This document shows positions 10,816-53,677 of a stretch of 64,000 nt of DNA, piece by piece. The notes below the pieces were generated by a model. It worked only from the letters and a program-made list of their open reading frames with translations, did not search any database and was not told the origin of the DNA. The first letter of the stretch is position 1. Each line of letters opens with the position of its first letter. The position numbers and the translations under genes are program-made. Origin of the DNA: Nocardioides aquaticus (GTDB lineage: Bacteria; Actinomycetota; Actinomycetes; Propionibacteriales; Nocardioidaceae); contig NZ_CP075371.1 in NCBI RefSeq assembly GCF_018459925.1, positions 372,001 to 436,000 on the forward strand. Direction: 5' to 3'.

Positions 10816-10900
10816 CGGAGGATAGGGGATTCGAACCCCTGAGGGCGTTAACCCAACCCGCTTTCCAAGCGAGCGCCATAGGCCACTAGGCGAATCCTCC
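10816..10900 (-). tRNA. tRNA-Ser (anticodon GGA)
   Basis: The sequence folds as an 85-base class II tRNA. The acceptor stem is GGAGGAT/ATCCTCC, the anticodon stem CTCGC/GCGGG holds loop TTGGAAA (anticodon GGA), the long variable arm is typical of serine tRNAs, and the T arm contains GGTTCGAATCC. The CCA end is not encoded. It decodes UCC/UCU codons. It lies just before the SRP RNA gene, an arrangement commonly found beside dnaX in actinobacteria. Confidence 0.97.
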
Positions 10901-10990: not shown

Positions 10991-11085
10991 CGGGCAACCC
11001 CCCGCGTGGCGGCACCTCACCCAAATCCCCCAGGGCCGGAAGGCAGCAAGGGCAAGTGGGCTCTGCCGGGTGCGCGGGGGCCTCT
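10991..11085 (+). ncRNA. ffs: Signal recognition particle RNA, small bacterial type
   Basis: The conserved SRP domain IV motif is present (GGGCCGGAAGGCAGCAAGGG, around 11033-11052), with its GGAA tetraloop region. The flanking arms CCCCCGCG (10999-11006) and CGCGGGGG (11073-11080) close the helix, giving the roughly 90-base hairpin expected. It binds Ffh and targets membrane proteins. The exact ends are estimated. It lies just upstream of dnaX, so any dnaX start inside this RNA is unlikely. Confidence 0.92.
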
Positions 11086-11154
11086 TCGTCCCCGGGACCG
11101 GTCAGGTCCCGGCCGCGGGCTCGGGCGGCCTGGTGGGCTGTCGGCGCCGGTGGC

Positions 11155-49632: not shown

Positions 49633-50465
49633 CCGGGTCCCGCCTGCTCCGCGGGCGCGTCGTCCGCCGGGTCCTTCGCGCCGGTCGCCAGGTCGGCACC
49701 GCGGCGGGGTACGACCGCCGCGCGGAAGCAGCGCGCGCTCCAGGGCAGCTGGAGGCCCTCCCACCCGCGGCCGAAGCCGTCGTAGAGGGCGAGCGCCTCG
49801 GCCAGGACCCGCTCGCGCTCCTCCTCGTCCTGCACCCGCACGTGCGACCGGGACAGCACCATGTCGCGCAACCGGTCGCGGTCGAGGGTCTGCCAGGACC
49901 CGAACGACGTCTCGTCGACGAAGCCGAACAGCCCCGAGGTGCTCAGCAGCGTCGTCCAGTCGCGCGGCTCGCCGGTGCCGCCGAGGATCCGGCCCAGCCG
50001 GCGGACCCACGGGATCCGTTCGTCCCGCTCGTTCCACACCATCGCGACGTGCCCGCCGGGCCGCAGCACGCGCACGATCTCGGGCAGCGCCCGGTCGAGG
50101 TCGAACCAGTGGAAGCACTGCGCGCCGACCACCACGTCGACCGAGCGGTCGGGCACGGGCAGCTCCTCCGCGGCGGCCTCGCTGACCCGCACGTCGGGCA
50201 GGCGCAGCGACAGCCGCGACAGCATGTCCTGGTCGGGGTCGGTGGCGTGGACGTCGTGACCCAGCGCGACCAGCTCGGCGGTGAGCTTGCCGGTGCCCGC
50301 GCCGAGCTCGAGGACCGACAGCGGCCGGGTGCCGGTCAGCCAGGTCGCGGCCTCCCGGGGGTAGCCGGGGCGGCCCCGGTCGTAGGCGTCGGCCACCGCG
50401 CCGAAGGCCTGTGCGGGTCGTCCCGGCGCGGGGACGGCCTCCGGCTGCTGCTGCTCGTCGTTCAT
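49569..50465 (-). CDS. Class I SAM-dependent methyltransferase
   Basis: This 298-residue protein has motif I VLELGAGTGKLT near residue 51, an acidic loop DPDQDML, and RVLRPGGHVAMVW as post-motif III, of the Methyltransf_11 type. The GAQCFHWFD segment is common in a family with unknown small-molecule substrates. The C-terminal ~40 residues are disordered and acidic. No pathway partner is adjacent. ATG 50465. It overlaps the chelatase gene tail to tail. Confidence 0.88.
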   Translation of the reverse strand: MNDEQQQPEAVPAPGRPAQAFGAVADAYDRGRPGYPREAATWLTGTRPLSVLELGAGTGKLTAELVALGHDVHATDPDQDMLSRLSLRLPDVRVSEAAAEELPVPDRSVDVVVGAQCFHWFDLDRALPEIVRVLRPGGHVAMVWNERDERIPWVRRLGRILGGTGEPRDWTTLLSTSGLFGFVDETSFGSWQTLDRDRLRDMVLSRSHVRVQDEEERERVLAEALALYDGFGRGWEGLQLPWSARCFRAAVVPRRGADLATGAKDPADDAPAEQAGPGQDAVDPPTDDDTGTLLIDFR

Positions 50466-50495
50466 CCCGGCGAGGCTACCGCCGTGGCCGTCTCC

Positions 50496-50501
50496 TAGGC
50501 T
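50496..50501 (+). promoter_or_regulatory. -10 box of the Rv3662c-like gene (leaderless)
   Basis: TAGGCT lies eight bases before GTG 50510. Confidence 0.45.
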
Positions 50502-50509
50502 CGACCGCT

Positions 50510-51259
50510 GTGCCAGTCCCGCCCGCAGCGCCCGCCGCCGACCCTCTCGCCTGGCTGGCCTCCGCCGAGGGCGTGCCGAGCGCCTTCGCCTCCGCCCGGG
50601 ACGGCATCGACGTCATGCTCCGCGACCGTGGCCTGCGCCGGACCAGCCCGGAGACCACCGCCGAGTCGCTGCTGCGCGGTGCGCACGCGAGCGCCGTGCT
50701 CGCCGGGTCCGGCTCCACCCTGGCCGAGGTCCGCGACGGCGAGGGCGACGCCGCCGCCGGCGACGCGGTCCGGGTGGCCACCGAGCTGCTCGGACTCGCC
50801 CCCACCCTGCGTACGGCGCCCCTGCAGGCGCTGGCCCGTCTCCACACGCTGGCCGCGACCGCCTCGCAGCCCGCCGACCGGCGCGGTCGCCCCCGTGACG
50901 GCGACGGCGCGCGCCGGCTGCGCGGGGTGGCCGACCTGCTGACCACGCCGACGTCGGCCCCGGCGCTGCTCGTGGCCGCCGTGGTGCACGCCGAGCTGGC
51001 CACCGCGGCCTGCTTCGGCAGCCACGACGGCCTGGTGGCCCGCGCCGTCGAGCGGCTGGTCGCCGTGGCCCGCGGGGTGGACGAGAAGTCGCTGGTGGTC
51101 CCGGAGGCCGGTCACCTGGCCCTGCGCGCGGAGTACGAGTCGAACCTGCGCGGGTACGCCGAGGGCGGCCGCGCCGGCGTGCACGCCTGGGCGCTGTACG
51201 CCGCGGAGGCCTGGGTGGCCGGGGCCGAGGCGAGCCCGCTGCGTCGCGAGGCGCTGTAG
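50510..51259 (+). CDS. Conserved actinobacterial hypothetical protein (Rv3662c-like)
   Basis: This 249-residue soluble, Ala-rich helical protein (DPLAWLASAEGVPSAFASARDG; TTAESLLRGAHASAVLAGS, split by loops) has no clear catalytic motif, signal peptide or membrane segment. It is recognised mainly by position: opposite the HAD gene and beside the structured RNA, as Rv3662c lies beside Rv3661 and MTS2823. Homologues are sometimes labelled oxidoreductase without support. The function is unknown. Start GTG 50510 after a leaderless promoter. Confidence 0.75.
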   Translation: MPVPPAAPAADPLAWLASAEGVPSAFASARDGIDVMLRDRGLRRTSPETTAESLLRGAHASAVLAGSGSTLAEVRDGEGDAAAGDAVRVATELLGLAPTLRTAPLQALARLHTLAATASQPADRRGRPRDGDGARRLRGVADLLTTPTSAPALLVAAVVHAELATAACFGSHDGLVARAVERLVAVARGVDEKSLVVPEAGHLALRAEYESNLRGYAEGGRAGVHAWALYAAEAWVAGAEASPLRREAL

Positions 51260-51299
51260 CCCCGGAAGCCGGCCCGGGTCGGGCACGGGCGGGTCCGGA

Positions 51300-51465
51300 C
51301 GTAGTGGTGGCACCCGGGCAGGGCCCGGATGCCACCGATGCACATGAACCTAGGGCTACCAGGCGTGCAGTTGTCTGCTGCCGCGGTCTTGCCGGGGTCA
51401 GCGCCCTGTCGGAAGGGTGGTTCGCCGCGTGGGTACCCGGTCATGTGCCGTCTGTGGAGTTGTGT
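51300..51465 (-). ncRNA. Probable Ms1/MTS2823-like (6S-like) small RNA
   Basis: This gap between the Rv3662c-like and HAD genes holds strong structure on the minus strand. A 14-bp hairpin at 51306-51336 (one wobble) is a likely 3' terminator. GCACATGA (51441-51448, minus) pairs with TCATGTGC (51340-51347), closing a ~100-base core that has an inner CGCGG/CCGCG pair. TTGTGT (51494-51499) and TACAAC (51471-51476) are 17 bp apart as -35/-10, giving a start near 51464. M. tuberculosis MTS2823, homologous to Ms1 that binds core RNA polymerase, lies in the same gap in the same orientation. Identity is inferred from position and fold; ends are estimates. Confidence 0.55.
51306..51336 (-). terminator. 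Strong hairpin at the 3' side of the small RNA
   Basis: GGTGGCACCCGGGC and GCCCGGATGCCACC form a 14-bp stem with a 3-base loop. It can also end the convergent Rv3662c-like transcript. Confidence 0.7.
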
Positions 51466-51532
51466 CCTCAGTTGTACGCCGATGTGACCTGGGACACAAG
51501 GGCGGCGGGCCGCCGGGCGGGGGGATCGGAGG

Positions 51533-52363
51533 TCACGACACCTGGCGACGACGGGCCCCGGCCCACACGACGCCGCCCACCGCGACCGCGCCGCCCACGG
51601 CGAGCGCCGCCAGCGTCGGCCGGGTCGAGGGCAGGTGCAGCCGGGAGCGCAGGGTGACCGGCCGGCTGAAGTTCAGCACCGGCCAGCCCCGGGCCGCCGC
51701 CGTCCGGCGCAGGTCCCGGTCGGGGTTGACCGCGTGCGGGTGGCCCACCGCCTCGAGCATGGGGACGTCGGTGACCGAGTCGCTGTAGCCGAAGCTCCGG
51801 TCGAGGTCGTAGCCGTGCTCGACGGCCAGCGCGGTGATCGCGCGGGCCTTCTCCTCGGCGTAGGCGTAGTACGAGATCTCCCCGGTGTAGCGGCCCTCGA
51901 CGACCTCCAACCGGGTGGCCACGACGTGGTCGGCGCCGAGCATGGCGCCGATCGGCTCGACCACCTCGGAGCCCGAGGTCGACACGATGACGACGTCCCG
52001 CCCGGCCCGGTGGTGCTCCTCGATCAGCGAGACGGCCTCGTCGTAGACGAGGGGGTCGACCACGTGGTGCAGGGTCTCGGCGACGATCTCGCGCACCGTC
52101 GCGACGTCCCAGCCGGCGCACAGCTGCGACATGAAGGCGCGCATCTTCTCCATCTGGTCGTGGTCGGCACCGCCCACGAGGTAGACGAACTGCGAGTACG
52201 CCGAGCGCAGCACCGCGCGCCGCGAGATGAGCCCACCGGCCTGGAAGGGCTTGGAGAAGGCCAGGGTGCTCGACTTGGCGATGATCGTCTTGTCGAGGTC
52301 GAAGAAGGCCGCGGTGGGCGCGGGCGGGGTGGTCGGCGCCGGCGGGGGCGTCGGGTCGGCCAT
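51533..52363 (-). CDS. HAD-superfamily hydrolase (SerB-like subfamily IB)
   Basis: This 276-residue protein has the HAD motif I FFDLDKTI (nucleophile Asp, acid Asp), motif II serine in VIVSTSGSEV, and motifs III/IV in YAEEKARAI and GYSDSVTDVPML. The C-terminal ~25 residues form a membrane-like helix ending in RRR. It corresponds to Rv3661. Phosphatase activity is predicted; SerB-like members act on phosphoserine or lysophospholipids. ATG 52363 has TACGAT six bases upstream. Confidence 0.88.
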   Translation of the reverse strand: MADPTPPPAPTTPPAPTAAFFDLDKTIIAKSSTLAFSKPFQAGGLISRRAVLRSAYSQFVYLVGGADHDQMEKMRAFMSQLCAGWDVATVREIVAETLHHVVDPLVYDEAVSLIEEHHRAGRDVVIVSTSGSEVVEPIGAMLGADHVVATRLEVVEGRYTGEISYYAYAEEKARAITALAVEHGYDLDRSFGYSDSVTDVPMLEAVGHPHAVNPDRDLRRTAAARGWPVLNFSRPVTLRSRLHLPSTRPTLAALAVGGAVAVGGVVWAGARRRQVS

Positions 52364-52525: not shown

Positions 52526-53677
52526 ATGGACGCCGACGACCACGACCCCTCCCGCCCGCCCGTGCTGGTGCTGACCCGCGACGCGGGGCTGCGCGAGCAC
52601 CTGCTGCGCCTGGCCGCCGCCGCGGGGTCGGCGGTGGCGGCCCCGGCGGAGCCGGGCGCCGCCCTGCGCGGGTGGGCGGGCGCCGGGCTGGTGCTGGTCG
52701 GCACCGACGCGGCGCCCGAGCTGGTGTCGTTGAGCCCGGCACGGCGCGCGGCCGTGCACCTGGTCACCTGGCCGCCGGTGCCGGACGACGCCTACCGCGA
52801 CGCCCTCGCCCTCGGGGCCGAGGACGTCCTCGACCTGCCGCGCTGCGACGCCTGGGTCGGCGACCTGGTCGCCGACGCGGCCGAGCCGCCCGGCGGCGCC
52901 GACCCCCCGACCGGGCACGGCGCGGCGGGCGCGCCCGGTCGGGCCGGGGTGGGTGCCGCGGACGGCCCCGGCGTGGTCGTCGGGGTGGTGGGCGGCAGCG
53001 GTGGTGCGGGGGTGACGACGCTGGTGGCCGCGCTCGGCCAGGTCGGCTCGGGCCGGGGCCGCACGCTGCTGGTCGACCTCGACCCGCACGGCCCCGGCCT
53101 GGACCGGGTGGTCGGCCTGGACGACCGGCCCGGGGTCGGCTGGGACGACCTGGACCGGAGCGCGGGTCGGCTCGGGGCCCGCGCCCTGCGGGAGGCGGTA
53201 CCCCGGCAGGGCGACCTCGGGGTGCTCACCTGGCGGGACGGAGCCCGTACGGACGTGCCGCCGCCCGGCGCCGTCGGCGCCGTCCTCGACGCCGCCCGGC
53301 GGGGCCACCGGCTGGTCGTGGTCGACCTCGCCCGGCAGGTCGCGACGGGGGGTGACGTGCTGGCGCGCCTGGACCGGTTGCTGGTGGTGGCCCGACCGGG
53401 CCTGGCGCCCGCCGCCTCGGCGGTCCGGCTGGTCGACGCCCTCAGCGGTCGGGCTGCGCCGCTGCTGGTGGTCCGGGGGGACCCCGTGGCCGCCGGGCGG
53501 TTGGAACGGGCCACCGGGGTGCCGCTGCTGCTGAGCATGTCCGACCAGCGGGGCCTGGCCGAGTCCGTCGACCTGGGCCTGGGACCGGTGCGGCACCGCC
53601 GCGGCGCGCTGGGTCGGGCCGCCGCGGAGGTGCTGGCGCTGCTGGCCGTCCGTGGGCCGTCCGGGCTGGTGGCGTGA
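52526..53677 (+). CDS. ssd: Septum site-determining protein Ssd / CpaE-like ATPase-fold protein
   Basis: This 383-residue protein has an N-terminal receiver-like region and a C-terminal MinD/CpaE fold (from ~145). The P-loop position reads GGSGGAGVTT, so the catalytic lysine of GKTT is Val and the signature lysine is also missing; switch II is VVDLARQ. ATP hydrolysis is therefore doubtful. In Rv3660c this protein affects septum placement; as first gene of a Tad operon it may instead position the pilus machine. It overlaps tadA by four bases. Confidence 0.85.
   Translation: MDADDHDPSRPPVLVLTRDAGLREHLLRLAAAAGSAVAAPAEPGAALRGWAGAGLVLVGTDAAPELVSLSPARRAAVHLVTWPPVPDDAYRDALALGAEDVLDLPRCDAWVGDLVADAAEPPGGADPPTGHGAAGAPGRAGVGAADGPGVVVGVVGGSGGAGVTTLVAALGQVGSGRGRTLLVDLDPHGPGLDRVVGLDDRPGVGWDDLDRSAGRLGARALREAVPRQGDLGVLTWRDGARTDVPPPGAVGAVLDAARRGHRLVVVDLARQVATGGDVLARLDRLLVVARPGLAPAASAVRLVDALSGRAAPLLVVRGDPVAAGRLERATGVPLLLSMSDQRGLAESVDLGLGPVRHRRGALGRAAAEVLALLAVRGPSGLVA

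What the first reader, a model, noticed from the sequence alone, without database searches (positions are those of the whole stretch)
51300..51499. Probable unannotated Ms1-like 6S-type RNA between the Rv3662c-like and HAD genes
Seen: the gap carries a long-range 8-bp pair (51441-51448 with 51340-51347), a 14-bp terminal hairpin (51306-51336) and a -35/-10 pair with 17-bp spacing on the minus strand. Known: in M. tuberculosis MTS2823 (Ms1 homologue, binds core RNA polymerase) lies between Rv3661 and Rv3662c, downstream of and in the same direction as Rv3661. The two flanking genes here are those homologues in the same relation. Inferred: this is the same RNA, shorter than the ~300-base mycobacterial form.
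Basis: partly seen in the sequence, partly recalled or inferred. Interest (0 to 1): 0.75.

Follow-up and report, generated by a model that had tools for sequence, protein, structure and literature searches.

The report
Short-armed Ms1 RNA, polymerase-binding family
This gap carries a conserved, folded small-RNA gene of the Ms1 family, whose tested relatives cling to RNA polymerase without its sigma factor, so this one likely does too; RNAs with the same sequence blocks turn up in two further bacterial classes.

Summary
The finding holds up. The minus strand of the gap carries a structured RNA (predicted 51302-51464). Across 65 sequences of the window's family its closing stem and terminator covary: 95.8% of pair cells are standard, against 86.7% shuffled and 32-43% slid. 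A -35/-10 pair recurs in 58 of 82 family loci. Rfam's Ms1 model (RF02566) misses the window. But a covariance model from 54 family cores hits 29 of 30 loci drawn with RF02566, and a second model without the window, mainly from Streptosporangiales, finds the window as its only significant hit in 64 kb (E 6.6e-7). So it is an Ms1 homologue. It is short mainly because one distal arm is 26 nt here and about 100 nt in RF02566-type loci. Ms1 in Nocardioides was already listed from synteny and similarity (PMC9130861, Table 4), so this is a new member of a known kind. Added here: covariation support, a branched core, working models where Rfam fails, and relatives in 15 of 27 and 3 of 5 genomes of two other classes. 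Transcription and polymerase binding are untested here.

The parts
51302..51464 (-). Predicted Ms1-type RNA, about 160 nt; ends inferred from the -10 box and the terminator hairpin
   Evidence: ends not measured
51338..51450 (-). Conserved core matched by covariance models R1 (84.0 bits, E 9.4e-18; window is in its training set) and R2 (40.3 bits, E 6.6e-7; window is not in its training set)
51494..51499 (-). -35 box TTGTGT
51471..51476 (-). -10 box TACAAC, 17 bp from the -35
51441..51448 (-). P1 closing stem, 5' arm GCACATGA
   Evidence: covaries:
51340..51347 (-). P1 closing stem, 3' arm TCATGTGC
   Evidence: covaries:
51422..51437 (-). Near-invariant motif 1 GGTACCCACGCGGCGA (5' side of P2 and of the inner loop)
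51354..51368 (-). Near-invariant motif 2 GCACGCCTGGTAGCC (3' side of P2 and of the inner loop)
51404..51417 (-). Hairpin A, CCCTTCCGACAGGG
51377..51402 (-). Hairpin B, GCTG..CAGC arm; covaries; much longer in RF02566-type loci
51306..51336 (-). Terminator-type hairpin, covaries; no T-run
51533..52363 (-). HAD-IB family hydrolase (TIGR01490), upstream neighbour on the same strand
50411..51259 (+).
52526..53677 (+). Septum site-determining protein Ssd (TIGR03815)

Best explanation
The minus strand of 51302-51464 holds a short-armed homologue of Ms1 RNA, likely transcribed from its own promoter and predicted to bind RNA polymerase core that lacks its primary sigma factor. Shown here: homology to RF02566-matched Ms1 loci, a covarying closing stem (P1), a covarying arm (hairpin B) and terminator, two near-invariant sequence blocks that face each other across a stem (P2) whose core pairs do not vary, and a recurring promoter pattern. 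Inferred from work on relatives: in late growth the RNA would accumulate and hold idle core polymerase through the P2 and inner-loop region, keeping a polymerase store for outgrowth. The distal arm differs greatly in length between clades, so it is likely not the binding site.
For: Covariation over 65 sequences: 18 of 32 pairs have changes on both sides, 193 such cells against 55.5 shuffled, 0 of 500 shuffles as high; the 54-sequence core gives 142 against 50.0, also 0 of 500. Model R1, built from the window's family, hits 29 of 30 loci drawn with RF02566 at E 2.5e-7 to 0.039 (19 of the 30 are above Rfam's cut-off), and hits L115-L118 inside the RF02566 matches. R1 matches 64 of 80 loci of named records; 51 of the 64 bear a genus that PMC9130861 lists as an Ms1 carrier (hand count). 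R2, mainly from Streptosporangiales, finds the window at E 6.6e-7, next hit E 7.6. Promoter pattern in 58 of 82 family loci against 0.52 in shuffles. HAD gene then RNA on one strand, as at L115-L118. By hand tally over, the RNA is present in 96 of 97 distinct window-family genomes whose HAD locus I held. No RF00013 6S match in this genome; the control set rang in 5 of 14. Binding to core polymerase was shown by others in M. smegmatis (PMC4191392, passages) and S. coelicolor (PMC9130861, section 20).
Against: RF02566 gives no match around the gap even at E 10, nor in the whole genome at E 1. The five core pairs of P2 never vary in A1, so they carry no covariation evidence. One measure is weaker: further pair types, 8 of 500 shuffles as high in A1 and 176 of 500 in A3. 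R2 is not fully independent, since its rows were cut at R1 matches. R1 missed RF02566-positive genomes G310 and G368 when whole genomes were scanned and rang in 8 of 296 phylum genomes under strict filters. G108 has the HAD gene but a 26-nt gap and no R1 match; G129 of the same genus (70% complete) also has the HAD gene and no R1 match. No expression data; RNA ends and polymerase binding are not tested.
Confidence: 0.86

Rival explanations
1. It is a true 6S RNA of this lineage that binds the sigma-bearing holoenzyme.
For: Ms1 was first found in 6S searches and its fold was described as 6S-like (PMC4191392, passages); the predicted length of about 160 nt is near that of 6S.
Against: No RF00013 match in this genome or in the 23 others searched. 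The two tested homologues bind core and not the holoenzyme with the primary sigma factor (PMC9130861 section 20; PMC4191392 passages). The covarying fold is branched, not a single rod.
Confidence: 0.06
2. It is the structured 3' end, or a two-way terminator, of the HAD gene and its convergent neighbour, without an RNA-gene function of its own.
For: It lies just downstream of the HAD gene on the same strand and ends in a strong hairpin between convergent genes.
Against: A promoter pattern recurs just before it in 58 of 82 family loci. In 8 genomes it sits 2.2-3.9 kb from the HAD gene and still matches R1. Two near-invariant blocks are not needed for termination (inference).
Confidence: 0.05
3. 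It is a small protein gene.
For: A 110-codon ORF starts inside P1 (51444-51112 minus).
Against: The ATG is kept in 8 of 54 aligned cores and GTG stands in 26. Spacing of the two blocks falls in all three frames (32, 27 and 24 of 83 loci). Each of the six frames has stops in 25-47 of 54 cores.
Confidence: 0.01

Closest known systems
Ms1 RNA of Mycobacterium smegmatis / MTS2823 of M. tuberculosis (Rfam RF02566)
   Same: HAD gene, RNA and convergent neighbour in the same order at RF02566 loci L115, L117, L118; P1 closing stem, ACCCACGCG and GCACGC..GGTA blocks, P2 and small hairpin A in RF02566-type loci
   Different: Hairpin B 26 nt here against a median of 103 nt in the 24 of 29 RF02566-type loci measured by a rough rule; predicted total about 160 nt against 304 model positions; not detected by the RF02566 model. 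M. smegmatis and M. tuberculosis themselves were not fetched by name
Ms1 / Str13 / scr3559 of Streptomyces coelicolor (228 nt by RACE ends, binds RNA polymerase core; PMC9130861, sections 19 and 20)
   Same: HAD gene as neighbour in the paper; R1 matches large genomes of family f6, probably Streptomyces (inferred)
   Different: S. coelicolor itself was not fetched by name here; its RNA is longer; measured ends exist there, none here
6S RNA (RF00013)
   Same: Structured RNA that occupies RNA polymerase; similar length
   Different: No RF00013 match in this genome; covarying branched core; tested Ms1 relatives bind core enzyme without the primary sigma factor

Membership tests
Ms1 RNA class (in the sense of PMC9130861) | Gene lies downstream of, and in the direction of, an HAD-IB hydrolase gene | tested here: met
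   HAD-IB TIGR01490, 190.8 bits; RNA motifs on the same strand
Ms1 RNA class (in the sense of PMC9130861) | Common ancestry with accepted Ms1 RNAs | tested here: met
   R1 hits 29 of 30 loci drawn with RF02566; R2 hits the window and 9 of 11 such loci given to it; R1 lies inside the RF02566 matches in L115-L118
Ms1 RNA class (in the sense of PMC9130861) | Conserved secondary structure | tested here: met
   the core pairs of P2 do not vary
Ms1 RNA class (in the sense of PMC9130861) | Central unpaired bubble needed for polymerase binding | tested here: inconclusive
   inner loops flank P2 in folds, but the published structure figure was not held, so which loop is the 'bubble' is unsure
[quoted passage not shown]
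   needs pull-down
Ms1 RNA class (in the sense of PMC9130861) | Accumulates in stationary phase | not testable with these tools
   needs RNA data
Rfam RF02566 (narrow model) | Score at or above the gathering score, 162 bits | tested here: not met
   no match in the window or genome; the cut-off is also missed by 92 of the 111 genomes of family f7 that match RF02566 at E 1e-6
6S RNA RF00013 | Match to the 6S covariance model | tested here: not met
   0 of 24 genomes incl. the window's own at E 0.1; control rang in 5 of 14, 4 above the cut-off

The most novel reading that the evidence does not exclude
Ms1 is an ancient branched RNA rather than a 6S-like rod: one closing stem, an unchanging P2 flanked by two sequence blocks that grip core RNA polymerase, and two arms, one of which varies about fourfold in length. 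It predates the class of the window and survives in two further classes of the phylum, five of whose RNAs match public metagenome-assembled genomes, and where I found it listed nowhere in print; the window carries a near-minimal working form.
Probability: 0.48. Interest if true: 0.62.

Novelty: new member of a known kind. Interest (0 to 1): 0.42.

Why it matters
Ms1 is one of the few RNAs known to hold RNA polymerase itself, yet outside mycobacteria it has been traced mostly by gene neighbourhood and BLAST similarity. The alignments and two covariance models here give sequence-and-structure evidence that reaches where RF02566 does not, point to the conserved P2 and inner-loop region as the likely polymerase contact, and offer a compact natural version (predicted about 160 nt) for structural work on how an RNA holds sigma-free polymerase.

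Tried and rejected
Rfam on the window: at gathering score only two tRNAs and the SRP RNA; permissive on 50900-51900, three chance microRNA models. The consensus promoter/terminator scan found nothing. A protein-coding reading was tested and dropped. Whole-phylum R1 scan with strict filters: 8 of 296 genomes; it loses RF02566-type loci that R1 finds at locus level, so absence there is weak evidence. R1 in 31 chosen genomes rang in 11; none in 5 of genus g236, where RF02566 also found none, in 3 of genus g30, in G280, G411, G496, G528, in G310 and G368 (RF02566-positive), in G108 and G129 (HAD gene present), or in G016, G123, G125, G137 (no HAD match at 1e-40). Motif 1 was missed at first in 14 window-family loci: 5 were recovered by R1 at the locus (L027, L040, L048, L057, L068), 8 in the genome 2.2-3.9 kb from the HAD gene, and 1 not at all (L076/G108).

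Rows dropped: L097 as a duplicate of L092, L001 as a duplicate of L002; 11 rows of A1 (65) left out of A2 (54), near-duplicates or divergent ones by eye; 16 of the 64 R1 matches left out of A3 (five for long inserts, L149, L182, L193, L207, L218; three weak ones, L158, L170, L210; the rest close copies by eye). A4 is fitted to R1, so its pair counts lean towards that structure. R1 and R2 have shortened calibration, so E-values are rough. Of the deep-class sequences, four were folded singly: two show the full plan (L130, L136), L282 lacks hairpin A and L139 lacks P2. One R2 match fell on the wrong strand (L114, E 0.1). RF02566 over 14 control genomes rang in 2, below its cut-off.

Papers: PMC9130861, outline, passages and sections 3, 7, 19, 20, 22 and part 1 of 2 of section 23; PMC4191392, PMC11077062 and PMC8539372, passages only; others only as search listings. 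A first check on the further classes showed 10 of 242 papers, so I repeated it more narrowly: 0 papers, and 1 review that names both terms once each and was not read.

Full report
What is there. The gap 51260-51532 lies between an HAD-IB hydrolase gene (51533-52363, minus; TIGR01490) and a convergent gene ending at 51259 (plus). The minus strand folds far better than shuffles (z -4.42, 0 of 200), the plus strand less so (z -2.51, 5 of 200). The gap sequence has one match in the genome, itself.

Comparative set. HAD-gene searches found a match in 97 of 98 genomes of the genus, 117 of 120 of the family, 72 of 97 of the order and 89 of 149 of the phylum (different E cut-offs, overlapping sets, the window's own genome in each). 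In 95 gaps of 150-800 nt, two of them duplicates, ACCCACGC occurs in 90. The blocks GGTACCCACGCGGCGA and GCACGC[CT]TGGTAGCC, allowing mismatches, stand 69-97 nt apart in 83 window-family loci, one a duplicate. By hand tally over, 96 of 97 distinct window-family genomes whose HAD locus I held carry the RNA: 82 by both blocks, 6 by R1 at the locus, 8 by R1 elsewhere in the genome, 2.2-3.9 kb beyond the HAD gene on the same strand. G108 lacks it; so does G129, whose locus I did not hold.

Structure. In A1 (65 sequences, the window among them) the consensus pairs are standard in 95.8% of cells (86.7% in shuffles; 32-43% when slid by 1-3 columns), with 193 double-change cells against 55.5. P1 has columns with G-C 39 / A-U 23 and A-U 37 / G-C 17. 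In A2 (54 cores) hairpin B also covaries, for example C-G 33 / U-A 11 and G-C 39 / A-U 11, though its two parts pair in only 78% and 88% of cells. The five core pairs of P2 never vary in A1. G-U cells outnumber A-C cells 153 to 33, in favour of the minus strand, but per pair the balance is 10 to 6. Single-sequence folds, by my reading, show the same branched plan in 17 of 18 printed for the window's family, 8 of 8 for Streptosporangiales and allies, 10 of 13 for RF02566-type loci and, in full, 2 of 4 for the deep classes. Hairpin B has a median of 103 nt in the 24 of 29 RF02566-type loci that a rough rule could measure, against 26 nt in the window.

Promoter and ends. TTGNNN, 16-18 bp, TA[CG][AG][AC]N precedes the core in 58 of 82 family loci; mononucleotide shuffles give 0.52 on average, 3 at most. 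The pattern was written after seeing the sequences. This puts the start near 51464 and, with the terminator hairpin, a length near 160 nt. Both ends are predictions.

Family membership. RF02566 does not match the window or its genome. R1 (from A2) gave 49 matches in 73 other loci at E up to 1; the best 42, E below 0.006, lie in the window's family, order or class. At L115-L118 it falls inside RF02566 matches, of which L115, L117 and L118 are above Rfam's cut-off and L116 is below. R1 hit 29 of 30 loci drawn with RF02566 (E 2.5e-7 to 0.039). It matched 64 of 80 loci from a pattern scan of named records; 51 of the 64 bear a genus that PMC9130861 lists as an Ms1 carrier (Table 4; section 22 read in full). 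R2 (48 sequences cut at R1 matches, mainly Streptosporangiales) finds the window at 6.6e-7 and 9 of 11 loci drawn with RF02566 at E 1.6e-4 to 0.042. So the window belongs with Ms1 by descent, and Rfam's model is too narrow: 19 of 121 genomes of family f7 pass its cut-off although 111 match at E 1e-6.

How it likely works. Work by others shows Ms1 bound to core polymerase without sigma in M. smegmatis, with weaker binding when the central bubble is removed (PMC4191392, passages), and core binding in S. coelicolor (PMC9130861, section 20). Ms1 affects the polymerase level and outgrowth from stationary phase (PMC9130861, introduction, citing Sikova et al. 2019, not read). I infer that the P2 region is the contact, because it is what the clades share while the arm beyond it changes length. 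No 6S match was found in this genome, so Ms1 may be its only RNA of this kind.

Beyond the known range. Outside the window's class (kinship labels of the genome set), the pattern ACCCACGCGCG...GCCGCGG..GGC occurs in 15 of 27 genomes of one class (8 of 8 of good quality) and 3 of 5 of another, with no hit of the reversed control pattern. The HAD place was known for 14 of these 18: 12 RNAs lie within 300 nt downstream of the HAD gene on its strand, one 3.7 kb downstream, and one 1.2 kb away on the other strand. R2 matches all 18 fetched loci, 16 at E 0.01 or better and two at 0.38 and 0.61. Five of these RNAs are identical over 130 nt to public records titled as metagenome-assembled genomes. The orders in PMC9130861's Table 4 all fall, to my knowledge, in the class Actinomycetes; searches for 'Ms1 RNA' with Thermoleophilia (0 papers), with Acidimicrobi- (1 review, not read) and for '6S RNA', 'Ms1' and 'covariation' together (0) gave nothing on this. 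A caution: one of the five identical records (L210) is titled 'Actinomycetes bacterium', so the class labels may not agree between sources, and the classes have no names here.

Novelty. Nocardioides stands in Table 4 of PMC9130861 as a predicted Ms1 carrier, from synteny and BLAST similarity, so the window is a new member of a known kind. New here, as far as those searches show, are covariation evidence, the branched common core, models that reach beyond RF02566, and the wider range.

Noticed in passing
L268-L285, L120-L139 (downstream of HAD): Ms1-like RNA in two classes of the phylum other than the window's: 15 of 27 and 3 of 5 genomes; full branched fold in 2 of 4 folded singly.
   Followed up: partly
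G568, G576, G584, G587, G595, G608: Six genomes of family f7 have two RF02566-type matches each at E 1e-6 or better; a second Ms1 copy may exist there.
   Followed up: no
L153:3055-3170: A record titled Geodermatophilaceae bacterium carries an R1 match (E 4.2e-4), although PMC9130861 reported no Ms1 in Geodermatophilales; the label may be wrong.
   Followed up: no
L004, L012, L026, L031, L036, L037, L039, L045: 2.2-3.9 kb between the HAD gene and the Ms1 core in eight window-family genomes; content not read.
   Followed up: no
L149, L182, L193, L207, L218: Ms1-type RNAs from Streptosporangiaceae-type and other actinomycete records with about 50 nt extra in the core, perhaps a step between short and long forms.
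   Followed up: no
L121, L122, L123, L126, L131: Selenocysteine tRNA genes near the HAD locus in genomes outside the window's class.
   Followed up: no
L114-L118 (and L112, L113 below the cut-off): A 6C RNA (RF01066) match lies on the upstream side of the HAD gene in related loci; none at gathering score in the window.
   Followed up: no
window 10996-11086: Bacterial small SRP RNA (RF00169), 57.9 bits, near a tRNA gene at 10816-10900.
   Followed up: no
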